Positions 54,053 to 62,520 of a DNA stretch of 64,000 nt are shown here, one piece after another. Location: assembly GCA_017430535.1 (NCBI GenBank), contig JAFRMR010000003.1, forward strand, positions 186,001 through 250,000, given 5' to 3'. Numbering within the stretch: the stretch's first letter is position 1; each line of letters begins with the position of its first letter. The notes beneath the pieces are model-generated. The model was not told the DNA's origin and searched no databases. It saw nothing but the letters and a program-made list of their open reading frames with translations. Source of the DNA: Clostridia bacterium (lineage in GTDB: Bacteria > Bacillota > Clostridia > Oscillospirales > Acutalibacteraceae). The position numbers and the translations under genes were made by a program.

Positions 54053-54080
54053 TTGACTTTTCATAAAACAGTGATATAAT
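54053..54080 (+). promoter_or_regulatory. Promoter of the ATP synthase operon
   Basis: TTGACT at 54053-54058 and a consensus TATAAT at 54075-54080 with a 16-bp spacer, about 35 bp before the atpB start. Confidence 0.85.
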
Positions 54081-54116
54081 TTATTCTATTCATTATAAGG
54101 GAAAGGAGTGACAGAA

Positions 54117-54944
54117 TTGAGCAAGAAAACCAAAGCAGTCAGTTCCCTTGTTTTCGCTCTGATTGCCGCAGCGCTTATAATCGGCATTATTCTTACCGGC
54201 AGTCCCGGTGAAAAGGAAGAAAGCATTAAAGAAGTGATGCGGGATGCGGTGCTTCATGAAACCGGAAAAATCAGCCTTTTCGGTATTATTCAGGTTAATC
54301 CCGGGCTTATTTCCGCCTTTACGGTTTCGGCAGTGCTGATAATTATTGCAATTATACTCCGGATTTTTGTTATACCTAAATTCACCCTGAAACCCGGTAA
54401 AATCCAATACCTGCTTGAAAGAGGAGTAGGGCTTTTTACAGGCATTGCAAAAGAAAACAGCCCCGACCACAATATTTTTGCCGGCGGATATATATTTGCA
54501 GCCGCGGTTTACATATTTTTCGGCACAATATTTGAGCTGTTCGGCATACAGGCACAGACTGTGAGAGGCATTTCAATCTCACTGCCCGCGCCCCTGGCAG
54601 ATATAAACGGAGCCATAGCCATGGGATTTCTGTCCTACGGAATAATACTGTTCGGCGGCCTGTTTACAAACGGAATAAAGGGAATGCTCAAAGCCCTGAA
54701 AGACTTTTCACTGCCTATATCAATGAGCTTCAGGCTTTTCGGCGCCCTGCTTTCCGGCGCACTTGTTACAGAGCTTGTATATTACTACGCTCTGACAAGC
54801 TATGTGCTGCCGGTTCTGGTAGGAGTGCTGTTTACCCTGCTCCATGCACTGATACAGTCTTATGTGCTTATAACTCTTGTTTCAATATTCTACGGTGAAT
54901 CCACCGAGCCTTCAAAAAAGAAAGAAAAGAGGAAAAAATCATGA
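54117..54944 (+). CDS. atpB: F-type ATP synthase subunit a
   Basis: Membrane stator half-channel subunit. Five to six hydrophobic segments; the essential Arg is in SMSFRLFGALLSGAL near residue 205, facing the c-ring Glu. The start is a TTG at 54117: AAGGAG (54103-54108) lies 8 bp upstream, whereas the GTG at 54108 overlaps that AAGGAG. An ~80-residue N-terminal portion with one membrane segment precedes the conserved core. No atpI precedes it. Confidence 0.93.
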   Translation: MSKKTKAVSSLVFALIAAALIIGIILTGSPGEKEESIKEVMRDAVLHETGKISLFGIIQVNPGLISAFTVSAVLIIIAIILRIFVIPKFTLKPGKIQYLLERGVGLFTGIAKENSPDHNIFAGGYIFAAAVYIFFGTIFELFGIQAQTVRGISISLPAPLADINGAIAMGFLSYGIILFGGLFTNGIKGMLKALKDFSLPISMSFRLFGALLSGALVTELVYYYALTSYVLPVLVGVLFTLLHALIQSYVLITLVSIFYGESTEPSKKKEKRKKS

Positions 54945-55315
54945 AAAACTTTACCAAAAAACTTCTTGCAATACTTGCGTTTATCTTTATTATCACCGCT
55001 TTGGCCGTGCCTGCTTTCGCAGCAGATGCAAAAACTGAAACAACAGCTGTTTCCGAAACCGCGGAACAGGAAGAATCCGGTGAATCCGGCGGTAATTCCG
55101 TAAAAGTAATCGGCGCAGCTGCAGTACTGGGCCTTGTTGCCGCTGTAGGCGCCGTGGGTATGGCTGTAGCTATCAAAGGCGCTTCCGACGGTATGGCACG
55201 CCAGCCCGAGGCTTCGGGAAACATAAGAACCGCTATGATGCTGGGCCTTGTTTTCATTGAAACAGCAATTATTTACGCCCTTATCGTATCAATACTTATC
55301 ATATTTGTACTCTGA
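54941..55315 (+). CDS. atpE: F-type ATP synthase subunit c with signal peptide and acidic linker
   Basis: Rotor-ring subunit. Unlike the usual 70-90 residues, this one has 124: a signal-peptide-like N-terminus ending VPAFAAD (about 28), an acidic Glu/Ser/Thr linker to about 50, then the normal hairpin of two membrane helices joined by the ARQPEA polar loop. The ion-binding Glu is in VFIETAIIYALIV. Helix 2 keeps the E-T...Y pattern of Na+ rings, but the helix-1 position that holds Gln in Na+ enzymes is Met by my alignment, so the coupling ion is unclear. Overlaps atpB by 4 bp. Confidence 0.92.
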   Translation: MKNFTKKLLAILAFIFIITALAVPAFAADAKTETTAVSETAEQEESGESGGNSVKVIGAAAVLGLVAAVGAVGMAVAIKGASDGMARQPEASGNIRTAMMLGLVFIETAIIYALIVSILIIFVL

Positions 55316-55337
55316 TTTCTGACACGGAGGATTGAAT

Positions 55338-55814
55338 ATGCCCTTAAACATAGATATTCAGCAGGTTCTTTTGCATATGCTGAATTTTGTGATACTTTTT
55401 GCCGCGTTGTATTTTTTGCTGTATAAACCGGTAAAAAAATTCATAGACGGCAGAGAAGAGTATTGCAAAGATATAGAAAAAAGAACCAAAACCACACTCA
55501 GCGATGCCGAAGAACTGAAATGCGAGTACAGCGGAAAACTGGAATCGGCTCAGGAAGAAATAAAAAAGATGAAATCGGATGCTGCCGATGAAGCAGAAAA
55601 AGAAGCCGATGAAATCAAAGATAAAGCACGGCAGGAAGCCGGCAATATAATTGAAAAGGCACGAGCCGAGGCTGAAAAAGAAAAAAGCAATATATTGAAC
55701 GGCGTGAATCCCGAAATCTGCAAACTTGCACAGGATGCAGCCGAAAAAATCGTATTTGAAAGCACATCGGATGCATATGACAGTTTTCTTGATATAACGG
55801 ATGGGGATGAATAA
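55338..55814 (+). CDS. atpF: F-type ATP synthase subunit b
   Basis: Peripheral-stalk subunit of 158 residues: one N-terminal membrane helix (LLHMLNFVILFAALYFLLY, about 9-27), then a long charged coiled coil (about 30-135). The ATG at 55338 has CGGAGG 7 bp upstream; the TTG at 55332 is too close. The next gene is not a separate delta; the b C-terminus would have to meet the delta-like segment fused to alpha. Confidence 0.95.
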   Translation: MPLNIDIQQVLLHMLNFVILFAALYFLLYKPVKKFIDGREEYCKDIEKRTKTTLSDAEELKCEYSGKLESAQEEIKKMKSDAADEAEKEADEIKDKARQEAGNIIEKARAEAEKEKSNILNGVNPEICKLAQDAAEKIVFESTSDAYDSFLDITDGDE

Positions 55815-55815
55815 T

Positions 55816-57519
55816 ATGACTCAGAACCAAGCGTATCTCTATTCAAATGAAGAACCCAGCAACAGCCAGAAATCAAGAATGATTGAATTCCTTAAGGATA
55901 AACACAACATCAGCGAATTGATTTTTGTAAAAGACGAATCCATTACCGCCGGCTTCCGCCTTATTGCAGGCAGCAAGGAATATGACTGGACCGGTGAGGG
56001 ACGGCTTAAGCAGTTCAAAGCTTCACTTGATGAGATAAAATTTGAAAAAGATGTTATTCCCCTGATTAAAGAAAAAATTGATAACTTTTCAACTGAAGTA
56101 ACCGGCACCGATATAGGCAGAGTAATAACCGTAAGCGATGATATTGCCACCGTAAGCGGACTTGACGGTGCGGAATACGGCGAAATACTGCTGTTTGAAA
56201 ACGGAATAAAAGGCCTTGTTCAGGACCTTAAAGAGGATGAAATAGGCTGTATTCTGTTTGATGAAGGCGATGATATATCCCAGGGCGGATTTGTAAGGCG
56301 CAGCGGAAAAGTTGCCGGTATGCCGGTCGGTGATAAATTTATCGGCAGGGTAACGGATGCCCTTGGCAATCCGATAGACGGCCTTGGAGATATAGAGGCA
56401 GATGATTACAGGCCCATAGAAAGGCCGGCTCCCGGTATAGTTGAAAGGCAGCCCGTAAATACTCCTATTGAAACGGGAATAATTACAATTGACACAATGT
56501 TTCCCATAGGCCGCGGCCAGAGGGAACTTATAATCGGCGACAGGCAGACGGGTAAAACCACCATTGCCGTTGACACAATCCTCAACCAGAAGGATAAAGA
56601 TGTTATATGTATTTATGTTGCAATCGGCCAGAAGGCAAGCTCTGTTGCTTCAACAGTTAATACGCTTAAATCCTTCGGCGCTATGGATTACACAACCGTA
56701 ATAAGTTCAACGGCAGCCGATCCCGATCCCCTGAAATATATTGCCCCTTACGCAGGATGCGCTCTGGGCGAGTATTTTATGGAAAAAGGGAAAGATGTTC
56801 TTATTATTTACGATGACCTTTCAAAGCATGCGGATGCTTACAGGACTTTAAGCCTGCTTCTCGGAAGATCGCCGGGGCGTGAGGCATATCCCGGCGATAT
56901 TTTCTACCTGCATTCAAGGCTACTTGAACGCTCGGCTCATCTCAGCGATGAACTGGGCGGCGGCAGCCTTACGGCAATCCCTATAGTTGAAACCCAGGCC
57001 GGTGATGTTTCCGCCTATATACCCACAAATGTAATTTCTATTACAGACGGTCAGATTTTCCTTGAAACAGGATTGTTTTTCAGCGGGCAGAGGCCTGCTG
57101 TTAATGTAGGTATTTCCGTTTCCCGTGTAGGCGGCGATGCTCAGGCAAAAATAGTTAAAAACACCTGTAAATCACTGAAAATAGAGCTTGCCCAGTACCA
57201 GGAAAAATCGGTATTCAACAAATTTTCATCGGACCTTGATGAAGAAACAAAGCAAAGCCTGCAGTTCGGCGAAAGCCTTATGATGATAATGCGCCAAAAG
57301 CAGCATACTCCCCTGTCAAGGCACAGAATTGTTATTATTATGACTGCGGCCCTCGGCAGAAAATTTGCCGGGCTGACTCTTGCCGAAACAGAGAAACTCA
57401 GCAATGAAATCTGCGCCGGATTTGAGGAAAAACATGACAGCCTCTGCAAAAAAATTGATGAGAAAGGAATACTTACGCAGGAAGAAACAGAAACCCTGAA
57501 AAACTATATTTTTGCGTAA
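55816..57519 (+). CDS. atpA: F-type ATP synthase alpha subunit with an N-terminal delta-C-terminal-domain-like fusion
   Basis: The alpha core starts near residue 75 (VIPLIKEKIDNF) and has Walker A GDRQTGKT, VAIGQKASSVAST, YDDLSKHADAYR and SRVGGDAQ, all normal. The first ~70 residues are extra. A short polar lead is followed by SRMIEFLKDKHNISELIFV, then DESITAGFRLIAGSKEY and GRLKQFKASLDE, which match the pattern of the delta C-terminal domain (D-x-S-L-x-G-G-x-x-I, then GxLxxLxxxL). No separate atpH exists in the operon, and the delta N-terminal six-helix domain is missing. The start may be ATG 55801, 55807 or 55816; all keep the fused segment. Confidence 0.93.
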   Translation: MTQNQAYLYSNEEPSNSQKSRMIEFLKDKHNISELIFVKDESITAGFRLIAGSKEYDWTGEGRLKQFKASLDEIKFEKDVIPLIKEKIDNFSTEVTGTDIGRVITVSDDIATVSGLDGAEYGEILLFENGIKGLVQDLKEDEIGCILFDEGDDISQGGFVRRSGKVAGMPVGDKFIGRVTDALGNPIDGLGDIEADDYRPIERPAPGIVERQPVNTPIETGIITIDTMFPIGRGQRELIIGDRQTGKTTIAVDTILNQKDKDVICIYVAIGQKASSVASTVNTLKSFGAMDYTTVISSTAADPDPLKYIAPYAGCALGEYFMEKGKDVLIIYDDLSKHADAYRTLSLLLGRSPGREAYPGDIFYLHSRLLERSAHLSDELGGGSLTAIPIVETQAGDVSAYIPTNVISITDGQIFLETGLFFSGQRPAVNVGISVSRVGGDAQAKIVKNTCKSLKIELAQYQEKSVFNKFSSDLDEETKQSLQFGESLMMIMRQKQHTPLSRHRIVIIMTAALGRKFAGLTLAETEKLSNEICAGFEEKHDSLCKKIDEKGILTQEETETLKNYIFA

Positions 57520-57536
57520 AGTATATCTCATAAATT

Positions 57537-60033
<2,497 letters not shown>

Positions 60034-60038
60034 TTTTT

Positions 60039-60071
60039 CTCCCCGGTTGCGATAACCGGGGAGCTCTTTTT
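60039..60071 (+). terminator. Terminator of the ATP synthase operon
   Basis: CTCCCCGGTT and AACCGGGGAG form a 10-bp stem around GCGAT, followed by CTCTTTTTA. Confidence 0.95.
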
Positions 60072-60132
60072 ATTGACTTGACTAAAATAAATGTGTTATC
60101 ATCTTTATATAAACTTTTCCGGAGGTAATGAA

Positions 60133-62520
60133 ATGAAAAATACAGCGGTTAAAATCACTGCTGCGGTTCTGAGCGCCTTATTGTTATTCGGTGTAATTCC
60201 GCTTTCATTTGCAGCTGGATTTGACAGTATCTGTCTCGGCAGTTATCCCCAGTCTCTTGTGGATGATTCTTCTTTAACAGCAGCACTCGATTCCATGGTT
60301 TCAGATGATGACTGGGTTTCTTACGGATATTACAGCAACGGCTCCCCGGCCGACTATATGTTCTATACGGATAAATATCTGAACGGTGAAAAATACAGAG
60401 GAGTCTGTTTCAGCCTTTACAGACCGACTGAGTGCAACCAAAACGCCGGAAATGAAGGAACAAAAAACTACGGCCAGCTGAATTACAATAAAAATTCAAT
60501 ATACTGGTTCCGATATGAGCCGATAAAATGGTATGTGTTGGATTATGATTCAGGGCTTGTTGTTTCTGAATATGCGCTGGACTGCATGGAATTCAGAGCA
60601 GATAATTCTGATAAAAACTACAGCACATCTGATATAAAAGAATGGCTTGAGAACAATTTTACCGAAACGGCTTTTGCCGCCGAAGAACTTGCTGCAATAA
60701 GCGGTAATGCGAAACTGCTTTCAGTTGAACAATGTGAAAATTCAGCTTTGTTTCCTACCTCTTCGGACAGAGTAGCCGCAACAACGCAGTATTCCGAAAT
60801 GCAGAATTGCTATTACGCATCCATAAACGGTGAACACTTCACTTTCTGGTGGACAAGTTCAGCCGTTGAAAATTCACTTAAAGCCTATACAATCGGTTTC
60901 ATGGGTGCAAAATCATCAACAGAATTAAACAAGATTTACGGTGTAAGACCGGCTTTGAATATTGACTTAAGCAAAGCCGTTCCATCCGACAGTACTCAGC
61001 ATACAATATACTACACACTTTATAATCCAGACGGAAGTGTTTATTCAAACAATAGCGAAAGATATAATACAGGCAGCCCGGTAACAGCCTACACGCCGGA
61101 AGTTGAAGGAATATTTTCCGGCTGGAATGATACTGTTCCTTCTGTAATGCCGGACCATGATCTTTATTACTGCTCCACTGTACAGGGCGTTCAGTACACA
61201 ATAACATATATTCTCGGCAACGTCGAAGATGATATTGTTAATTCTTATACAGCAGGAGAAACCATTATAAAACCTGCCGATCCTGTAAGAGAGCATTACA
61301 GTTTCAAAGGATGGAATACGACTGTTCCCGAAACTATGCCGGCGGAAAACATAACAATTACAGCCCTTTGGGAAATTAACAAACACGATGTTATTTATAT
61401 TGCCGATTCTCAGGAGTATGAAAGAATACCAGATGTTGCATACGGCATCACAGTACCGGAGTGCTCCAAAGGCAACCCTGAAAAAGAAGGATATAGATTC
61501 ACCGGCTGGGCTGCATCACCCTCAACTATGCCGGACGAAGATTTGTATATAGATGCCTGCTTTGAAATTGAGTCCTACACAATTACATATATTCTCAATA
61601 ACGGTGAAGAAAATATTGTAACCGAATATGAATTCGGTCAGCAGGTTGAAAAGCCGGATAACCCGGTATATGAAGGGCACTCTTTCTCAGGCTGGAGCAT
61701 CATCCCCCCGGATACTATGCCCGCCAAAGATCTAGTAATCGAAGCAAAATGGGATACTGTTCTTTATACTCTTACTCTTGATTTTGACTGTGAAAAAGAG
61801 AATGAGATACGCAACTATGAATTCGGTGAAGAAATTTCCGGCATCCCCATGCCCGAACGGACAGGTTATGTTTTTGACGGATGGAGCCCGGAAATACCGG
61901 CAACCATGCCCGCAAATAACCTGACTGTAAAGGCAAAGTGGAAGATTGTCCCTGAAACACACACCCACAATTTCATTTATGAAACTACCGATACACATCA
62001 TCGGTTTGTATGCGCCTGCGGCGAAAAGAAAGCTTATGAAAAGCACTCATTTACCTGGAAAACGGAAAAAGAACCAACGGCAACAAAACAGGGATTAACA
62101 AAGGGTATCTGCAGCAAATGCGGTTACTGTATAACAAAAGCAATTCCTCCCCTCGGCAATCCGGTAATCAATGCTCCGGCAGGCCGTAAAATTGCCTACA
62201 GGTCAAATATCAAAGTTAAGGCAACCGGTAAAGATATACCGTCAGATTGCAGGCTTGTTCTTTTTGCCGGAAACAAACCGGTCAGATACGGCGATAACAG
62301 CAAAGTGGAATATGAGGCAGAAGATATTAGAGATAATATATCTTTTACAGTTAAGGTTATGGGCAAAACCGATAACAAAGTGCGAAATAACAGCAACGGT
62401 AATCCCCTTATCAAATCCTTTGATGTAACCCTGAATAAAGGATTTTTCCAGAGAATAATCGCATTTTTTGTTCATCTTTTCAAGCTCACAAAAACCGAAA
62501 GATTTGAGCCAACCGCATAA
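60133..62520 (+). CDS. Secreted DUF6273 / InlB-repeat surface protein
   Basis: A 795-residue exported protein. The signal peptide ends near SFAAGFDS. A DUF6273-like domain (about 25-300) has CLGSYPQSL, NSIYWFRYEPIKWYVLDYD, DIKEWLENNF, FWWTSSAV and GVRPALNI. Five InlB B-type repeats follow (GW..PxTMPA..L.. pattern), then a Cys/His region (FVCACGEKKAYEKHSFTW, CSKCGYC) and a beta domain. It ends with a short hydrophobic segment, FFQRIIAFFVHLFKL. The ATG at 60133 follows a GGAGG. Such proteins are usually cell-surface structural or adhesive; no LPXTG is seen. Confidence 0.85.
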   Translation: MKNTAVKITAAVLSALLLFGVIPLSFAAGFDSICLGSYPQSLVDDSSLTAALDSMVSDDDWVSYGYYSNGSPADYMFYTDKYLNGEKYRGVCFSLYRPTECNQNAGNEGTKNYGQLNYNKNSIYWFRYEPIKWYVLDYDSGLVVSEYALDCMEFRADNSDKNYSTSDIKEWLENNFTETAFAAEELAAISGNAKLLSVEQCENSALFPTSSDRVAATTQYSEMQNCYYASINGEHFTFWWTSSAVENSLKAYTIGFMGAKSSTELNKIYGVRPALNIDLSKAVPSDSTQHTIYYTLYNPDGSVYSNNSERYNTGSPVTAYTPEVEGIFSGWNDTVPSVMPDHDLYYCSTVQGVQYTITYILGNVEDDIVNSYTAGETIIKPADPVREHYSFKGWNTTVPETMPAENITITALWEINKHDVIYIADSQEYERIPDVAYGITVPECSKGNPEKEGYRFTGWAASPSTMPDEDLYIDACFEIESYTITYILNNGEENIVTEYEFGQQVEKPDNPVYEGHSFSGWSIIPPDTMPAKDLVIEAKWDTVLYTLTLDFDCEKENEIRNYEFGEEISGIPMPERTGYVFDGWSPEIPATMPANNLTVKAKWKIVPETHTHNFIYETTDTHHRFVCACGEKKAYEKHSFTWKTEKEPTATKQGLTKGICSKCGYCITKAIPPLGNPVINAPAGRKIAYRSNIKVKATGKDIPSDCRLVLFAGNKPVRYGDNSKVEYEAEDIRDNISFTVKVMGKTDNKVRNNSNGNPLIKSFDVTLNKGFFQRIIAFFVHLFKLTKTERFEPTA
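61005..61941 (+). repeat. Five InlB/Listeria-Bacteroides-type protein repeats
   Basis: Each unit of about 60 residues has a YTITYIL-like strand, a central FxGW and a TMPAxxLxxxA ending. Units begin near 61005, 61195, 61378, 61567 and 61755. They differ enough in DNA sequence to be old. Confidence 0.85.

What the first reader, a model, noticed from the sequence alone, without database searches (positions are those of the whole stretch)
55801..57519. ATP synthase alpha subunit carries a delta C-terminal-domain-like segment; the delta gene is missing
The operon reads a-c-b-alpha-gamma-beta-epsilon with no separate delta. Alpha has about 70 extra N-terminal residues that follow the delta C-terminal-domain pattern (NISELIFV, then DESITAGFRLIAGSKEY, then GRLKQFKASL). 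In known enzymes the delta N-terminal six-helix domain binds the alpha N-termini and its C-terminal domain binds b. Here the alpha-binding half seems lost and the b-binding half joined directly to alpha. Three alphas per complex would mean three delta-C copies for an expected two b subunits, so stator stoichiometry must differ or only some copies engage. Known b-delta fusions (mycobacteria) are different. I know of no description of a delta-alpha fusion, but I could not search.
Basis: partly seen in the sequence, partly recalled or inferred. Interest (0 to 1): 0.78.

Follow-up and report, generated by a model that had tools for sequence, protein, structure and literature searches.

The report
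ATP synthase with stalk-docks on alpha
This bacterium's ATP synthase has no separate delta subunit and instead carries delta's stalk-binding half on its alpha subunit, of which such enzymes have three, the same layout that engineers recently built to get up to three stalks, so it may be a natural example of such a machine.

Summary
Alpha (55801-57519) carries a delta/OSCP C-terminal domain at its N-terminus, and neither the operon nor the genome shows another delta gene. Many related Clostridia have the same fusion. It is not undescribed: Ueno et al. [quoted passage not shown] The window protein aligns collinearly with their solved chain 9jc1_I, linker included. Best reading: a natural multi-stalk F-type ATP synthase. 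The anatomy is shown from sequence; stalk number is inferred.

Following relatives gave more. (1) A second fused group (f52) is separate from the window's clade (AU p 0.0009). (2) A full-length delta-alpha fusion lies beside the window's clade and looks like an intermediate. (3) A third architecture, b'(transmembrane)-deltaC-alpha of about 740 aa, occurs in 13 distinct loci and in the window's own genus. I found nothing on it in ten searches of an open-access library. It would tie every alpha to the membrane by its own stalk helix, so it predicts three stalks by covalent stoichiometry.

The parts
54053..54080 (+). promoter-like site upstream of the operon (TTGACT-16-TATAAT, TG before the second hexamer)
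   Evidence: consensus match only, 21 such sites found in the region against a mean of 12.4 in shuffles
54108..54944 (+). atpB, subunit a (start codon uncertain, GTG 54108 or TTG 54117)
   Evidence: PF00119 E 5.4e-13
54941..55315 (+). atpE, subunit c, 124 aa, with a hydrophobic signal-peptide-like N-terminus and acidic linker before the two-helix hairpin
   Evidence: PF00137 match at residues 57-120, E 1.6e-11; extension judged by eye
55332..55814 (+). atpF, subunit b, 160 aa (TTG 55332 or ATG 55338); the stop overlaps or abuts the alpha start
   Evidence: PF00430 E 1.1e-21; the only b over the cut-off in the genome
55801..57519 (+). atpA, fused deltaC-alpha subunit, 572 aa
   Evidence: TIGR00962 residues 83-570, 687 bits; PF00213 residues 8-76
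55822..56028 (+). delta/OSCP C-terminal domain (alpha residues 8-76), the b-binding dock
56029..56049 (+). linker between deltaC and ordinary alpha (residues 77-83)
   Evidence: ordinary alpha chains of the PDB begin to match at residue 84 or later; engineered chain 9jc1_I aligns through the linker with four residues more
57537..58373 (+). atpG, subunit gamma
   Evidence: PF00231 E 4.2e-72
58370..59773 (+). atpD, subunit beta
   Evidence: TIGR01039 786 bits
59770..60033 (+). atpC, subunit epsilon, 87 aa: N-terminal domain only
   Evidence: PF02823 residues 4-78
60039..60063 (+). terminator-like stem of 11 pairs followed by T-rich tail, directly after epsilon
   Evidence: consensus match only, 12 such sites against a mean of 7.4 in shuffles

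Best explanation
An F-type ATP synthase/ATPase in which each of the three alpha subunits carries its own dock for a peripheral stalk. The delta C-terminal domain that normally binds the b dimer is the N-terminal domain of alpha. The delta N-terminal domain, which in ordinary enzymes sits on the threefold axis on top of F1 and limits the enzyme to one stalk, is absent. Every F1 therefore offers three equivalent b-binding sites (this much follows from sequence). I think it most likely assembles more than one b2 stalk, up to three, each bringing its own a subunit to the c-ring (inferred from the engineered homologue). Protons per turn would then be the number of c times the number of a subunits, so the enzyme could make ATP at low proton-motive force, or pump more protons per ATP when run backwards in a fermenting cell (inferred).
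For: DeltaC on alpha, no delta N-terminal domain and no other delta gene, one F-type alpha and one b gene in the genome, no in-frame start codon between deltaC and alpha in the window. The engineered deltaDeltaN-alpha enzyme forms up to three stalks with three a subunits and H+/ATP 5.8 against 3.0 (PMC12229609). The window protein aligns collinearly with its solved chain 9jc1_I, residues 39-523 to 36-523. The dock is conserved: in 12 relatives not chosen by motif, A11, P19, G51, F52, D62, W63, G67 and P87 do not vary.
Against: Nothing measured in this lineage. Engineered particles lost stalks easily and averaged about two, not three. The operon has one a and one b gene like any other, and nothing in the sequence shows that more a or b is made. 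43 of 60 relatives do have some in-frame ATG, GTG or TTG between deltaC and alpha (4 of these with a Shine-Dalgarno-like stretch), so a mix with plain alpha is not excluded there. No structure model could be made.
Confidence: 0.6

Rival explanations
1. Single-stalk enzyme: three docks exist but only one is used, because the a subunit, the c-ring or the supply of b allows one stalk. The fusion is gene economy or firm attachment.
For: One a and one b gene in an ordinary-looking operon. Engineered particles with one stalk fit the wild-type maps well.
Against: Three equal docks without the axis-blocking domain gave several stalks in the engineered enzyme. The b'-deltaC-alpha relatives tie each alpha to its own stalk helix.
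Confidence: 0.27
2. Mixed alpha: cells also make alpha without deltaC, by internal start or proteolysis, so each enzyme has about one dock.
For: 43 of 60 relatives have an in-frame start codon between deltaC and alpha, 4 with a Shine-Dalgarno-like stretch.
Against: The window has no such codon and its genome has no second F-type alpha gene.
Confidence: 0.06
3. The deltaC domain no longer binds b and caps F1 or does something else; coupling to the membrane works otherwise.
For: The domain is divergent (20% identity to free deltas in the profile alignment).
Against: Glycine and aspartate positions shared with free deltas are kept, b is an ordinary b, and no other stalk gene was seen in the operon.
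Confidence: 0.05
4. Chance resemblance, or a delta gene missed by the assembly.
For: The window's PF00213 score is just under the cut-off and the assembly is 96.9% complete.
Against: 57 of 61 such N-termini hit a free-delta profile against 0 of 1480 shuffles. None of the 14 genomes with a fused alpha has a second match over the cut-off. Lachnospiraceae AC2031, whose locus lies on a 3.19 Mb contig, shows only the fused copy.
Confidence: 0.02

Closest known systems
Engineered Bacillus PS3 deltaDeltaN-alpha FoF1 (Ueno et al. 2025, PMC12229609; PDB 9jc1)
   Same: Delta C-terminal domain on the alpha N-terminus, delta N-terminal domain absent, no separate delta, epsilon without its C-terminal domain, nearly the same linker length.
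   Different: Man-made; stalk number measured there, not here. The window's c has an N-terminal extension.
Natural fusion in Acidaminococcus fermentans and UniProt G4Q3K6, A0A1I2C5T3 (Ueno et al. 2025, Discussion; Supplementary Fig. 9 not seen)
   Same: Delta-alpha gene fusion without the delta N-terminal domain.
   Different: Sequences not available here. If group f52 (L174-L176, L179) is that family, which I could not check, the window's fusion arose separately.
Mycobacterial b-delta fusion (e.g. 7jg5 chain d)
   Same: A delta C-terminal domain joined to another subunit.
   Different: There a whole delta is joined behind a b part (445 aa). The window's b scores 22.3 bits against a cut-off of 328 for the b/delta model.
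N-ATPase (alternate F1Fo ATPase)
   Same: Operon without a delta gene.
   Different: Alpha 584 against 750.5 bits, beta 592.4 against 752, b 57.1 against 224.7; gene order differs from the beta-epsilon-a-c-b-alpha-gamma order given in PMC5709465.
V-type ATPases with three peripheral stalks
   Same: Would share several stalks around one rotor, if the reading is right (comparison from general knowledge).
   Different: The window's alpha, beta, gamma, epsilon, a, b and c are F-type by Pfam and NCBIfam.

Membership tests
Natural deltaDeltaN-alpha fused F-type ATP synthase (Ueno et al. 2025) | delta C-terminal domain fused to the alpha N-terminus | tested here: met
Natural deltaDeltaN-alpha fused F-type ATP synthase (Ueno et al. 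2025) | delta N-terminal domain missing | tested here: met
   match starts at PF00213 position 102; b stop to deltaC match at most 73 nt in 60 of 60 loci of this type
Natural deltaDeltaN-alpha fused F-type ATP synthase (Ueno et al. 2025) | no separate delta gene | tested here: met
   own genome. Some other carriers do have a second, ordinary operon with its own delta
Natural deltaDeltaN-alpha fused F-type ATP synthase (Ueno et al. 2025) | more than one peripheral stalk and a subunit | not testable with these tools
OSCP/delta family PF00213 | profile match over the curated cut-off | tested here: inconclusive
   window 21.8 bits against 22.3; 11 fused relatives pass
OSCP/delta family PF00213 | full two-domain delta | tested here: not met
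   only the C-terminal domain is present, so it is a delta domain, not a delta subunit
N-ATPase | NCBIfam alt_F1F0 models over cut-off | tested here: not met
b-delta fusion (mycobacterial type) | delta fused behind b | tested here: not met
   b is 160 aa and matches PF00430 without a PF00213 match

The most novel reading that the evidence does not exclude
Multi-stalk F-type ATP synthases (up to three b2 and three a subunits) are a widespread natural class in anaerobic gut and rumen Clostridia, reached by deltaC-alpha fusion (the window's kind) and by b'-deltaC-alpha fusion, in which every alpha is tied to the membrane by its own stalk helix. They trade speed for a two- to three-fold higher H+/ATP ratio.
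Probability: 0.5. Interest if true: 0.92.

Novelty: new member of a known kind. Interest (0 to 1): 0.7.

Why it matters
The H+/ATP ratio is usually taken to be set by c-ring size. If enzymes with several stalks and a subunits exist in nature, the ratio has a second evolved dial, which would change the energy budgets of fermenters living at low proton-motive force. The natural evidence that I found in print is a short note on Acidaminococcus and two accessions. The window belongs to a large clade that includes named strains (Eubacterium ruminantium ATCC 17233, Lachnospiraceae AC2031 and LC2019), so the question becomes testable. The b'-deltaC-alpha relatives, if real as read, would make several stalks a matter of covalent stoichiometry and are the sharpest test.

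Tried and rejected
Rejected: chance resemblance; another atpH in the genome; N-ATPase membership; an internal start giving plain alpha in the window (not excluded in relatives); one common clade of the window's type with group f52 (AU p 0.0009; the grouping was chosen after seeing the tree). Not settled: whether the window's clade and the b'-deltaC-alpha clade share one fusion. AU p was 0.062 for alpha and 0.275 for beta (45 rows), 0.037 for both joined (44 rows, L075 dropped), 0.17 with another sampling (39 rows). I do not claim separate origins there. Trees are quick searches with SH-aLRT only.

Led nowhere: phmmer of the 97-aa N-terminus against the PDB found no delta, a profile did; the b'-deltaC-alpha type was not found in 33 genomes of named loci (one weak hit, a 184-aa frame). 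An invariance of YDWTxEGRL in the 28-row alignment is not evidence, because those loci were fetched with that very pattern; I use instead. A short epsilon is not special: 12 of 56 loci of the window's type, 13 of 13 of the b'-deltaC-alpha type and also 4 of 12 ordinary ones have it.

Rows dropped: the tree leaves out near-copies and partial loci (L071, L076, L082, L083, L086, L098, L107, L116, L134, L164); later trees use subsets. tallies only the 150 rows that one search listed (more were not shown), and one gene (G122) counts twice there. L116 (Sphingomonadaceae, an 18-residue match without ATP synthase genes) was set aside as chance, leaving 35 of 36 loci. In one search the miss of L132 comes from an upstream part of its frame that pushes the domain out of the 130 residues scanned (domain at 96-166).

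Full report
WHAT IS THERE. The window holds an F-type ATP synthase operon: a (54108-54944), c (54941-55315), b (55332-55814), alpha (55801-57519), gamma (57537-58373), beta (58370-59773), epsilon (59770-60033). A promoter-like site lies before it and an 11-pair terminator-like stem directly after it; both are consensus matches only. Alpha has 572 residues. Its ordinary part begins near residue 83 (TIGR00962 83-570). [quoted passage not shown] That is 0.5 bits under Pfam's cut-off, so I tested it in other ways.

IS IT MORE THAN CHANCE? In one search, 16 of 40 genomes have a PF00213 match over the cut-off; 11 of these are fused alphas (best of the window's type: G003, E 1.7e-10) and 5 are separate deltas. 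Profile-profile comparison with four free deltas gives 97.2% probability, E 3.5e-11. A profile made only from 18 stand-alone deltas, so not circular, hits 57 of 61 alpha N-termini of this type and 13 of 13 of the larger type below at E<=1e-3, against 0 of 12 ordinary alphas and 0 of 1480 shuffles. The four misses are L064, L091 and L150 (weak hits) and L132 (domain outside the stretch scanned). In 12 relatives not chosen by motif, A11, P19, G51, F52, D62, W63, G67 and P87 do not vary.

IS DELTA REALLY GONE? The own genome (2.41 Mb, 27 contigs, 96.9% complete) shows one PF00213 match at E<=1, the fused one. None of the 14 genomes with a fused alpha has a second match over the cut-off (weak second matches, E 0.04-0.35, occur in five). 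The b stop lies within 73 nt of the deltaC match in 60 of 60 loci of this type, so the N-terminal domain of about 100 residues has no room. Of 18 genomes of named loci, 14 show only the fused copy; three show a fused copy and a full free delta (E. ruminantium ATCC 17233, E. ruminantium FB3002, the L089 genome); one (L091) shows no PF00213 hit, although its alpha matches the deltaC profile. Some genomes carry a fused operon beside an ordinary one: both operons were fetched for G402, G282, G317, G202 and G399 (G399 with the larger type), while for G275 and G359 the fused copy is known from its frame length only.

HOW MANY DOCKS? In the own genome the other alpha-like hits are its beta and a pair on contig C24 that looks like a V/A-type pair, so one F-type alpha gene was found, and one b over the cut-off. 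The window has no in-frame ATG, GTG or TTG between deltaC and alpha. Every F1 should thus bear three deltaC domains. This is deduced, not measured. In relatives 43 of 60 do have such a codon, 4 of them with a Shine-Dalgarno-like stretch.

WHAT IT WORKS LIKE. Ueno et al. 2025 (PMC12229609; abstract, passages and sections 10 and 13 seen) deleted delta residues 2-104 of Bacillus PS3, fused the rest to alpha, and used an epsilon without its C-terminal domain. They found up to three b2 stalks and three a subunits, about two on average, and H+/ATP 5.8 against 3.0. They argue that delta's N-terminal domain, on the threefold axis, limits the enzyme to one stalk. The window protein aligns with their chain 9jc1_I collinearly (39-523 to 36-523), the engineered linker being four residues longer; the other 40 chains listed begin to match at residue 84 or later. 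The window's epsilon is also an N-terminal domain only (87 aa), but this is not specific to fused operons. My best reading is therefore a natural multi-stalk enzyme. Shown: docks present, N-terminal domain absent. Inferred: several stalks, several a subunits, higher H+/ATP.

PRIOR ART. The same paper's Discussion reports a natural fusion in A. fermentans and UniProt G4Q3K6 and A0A1I2C5T3 (Supplementary Fig. 9 not seen). So the kind is known. A survey of transcription units (PMC5709465; passages seen) lists units in Clostridia without delta; the passages that I saw do not mention deltaC on alpha. Ten searches of the held open-access library gave no other description of a delta-alpha fusion and none of a b-delta-alpha fusion. 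Subscription journals and preprints were not searched.

HOW WIDE. In the window's genus (45 genomes) 26 have a deltaC match: 19 with the window's type (two of them short frames, 474 and 277 aa), 5 with a 738-aa frame, 3 with a free delta (G420 has the 738-aa frame and a free delta); 19 have none. In the order (394 genomes, 206 with a match), of the 150 rows listed 94 are free deltas, 41 are 570-690 aa, 12 are 735-785 aa and 3 are other. Among the rows listed for 398 genomes of the phylum, fused frames are few (capped list). The genome-contig scan, restricted to the pattern YDWTxEGRL, gave 35 usable loci of 36, titled mostly as Clostridia of rumen and gut; two bear the title Acholeplasmatales.

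HOW IT AROSE. An alpha-core tree without deltaC (85 rows) puts the window's type in one clade (support 100) and the larger type in another (support 100). A fused group in family f52 (L174-L176, L179) stands apart; one clade with the window's type is rejected (AU p 0.0009). Beside the window's clade stands L177, a nearly full-length delta (PF00213 26-171, E 3e-21) fused to alpha. This reads as the intermediate: fusion first, loss of the N-terminal domain later (inference).

A THIRD ARCHITECTURE. In 13 distinct loci and two near-copies, alpha is about 740 aa. It begins with a strongly hydrophobic helix (hydropathy 2.0-2.8 over 19 residues, against at most 1.73 in the first 170 residues of the window's type; the type label itself used a threshold of 1.6). 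Then come a b-like stretch (PF00430 over its cut-off in 5 of 6 tested, 26.2 against 28 bits in the sixth), deltaC (PF00213 E 7e-11 or better in 6 of 6) and alpha. A separate b gene precedes it in 14 of the 15 loci by profile label, and in the fifteenth (L074) likewise, with 468-544 nt between the b stop and deltaC in 13 of 13. Four carriers from the window's genus were fetched (G002, G011, G420, G426); a fifth, G857, is known by frame length. Each alpha would be joined to the membrane by its own b', which predicts three stalks more strongly still. Whether this type shares its fusion event with the window's clade is open.

LIMITS. No structure model could be made. Most relatives are unnamed or metagenome-assembled genomes. 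Performance at low proton-motive force is inferred from the engineered enzyme.

Noticed in passing
L074:3400-5613, L076, L152-L164: Alpha of about 740 aa with an N-terminal transmembrane helix, a b-like stretch and deltaC (b'-deltaC-alpha), beside a separate b gene.
   Followed up: yes
L177:3271-5343 (G803): Nearly full-length delta fused to alpha (691-aa frame), sister to the window's clade; the same genome also has an ordinary operon (L180).
   Followed up: partly
L142:3523-5565 (G122): Tandem deltaC-deltaC-alpha, 681-aa frame: two PF00213 stretches before alpha.
   Followed up: no
window 54941-55315 and c genes of the same type: Subunit c has a hydrophobic, signal-peptide-like N-terminus and an acidic Ala/Glu-rich linker before the two-helix hairpin; seen by eye in c frames of this type not cut by contig ends, not in the ordinary, f52 or b'-deltaC-alpha operons. 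No signal-peptide program was run.
   Followed up: partly
G000:C24:22324-24578 (outside the window): Two further alpha/beta-like genes with frames of 592 and 467 codons, probably A and B of a V/A-type ATPase (by frame length and weak similarity; no family search).
   Followed up: no
L093, L105, L111 (genomes G441, G432, G433): A read-through PF00213 match runs from upstream of the fused alpha across a single TAA, so b and alpha seem to lie in one frame with one stop between them.
   Followed up: no
window 60091-62520: Downstream of the terminator-like stem lies an 809-aa open frame with a hydrophobic N-terminus and repeated blocks, perhaps a surface protein (by eye; no search).
   Followed up: no
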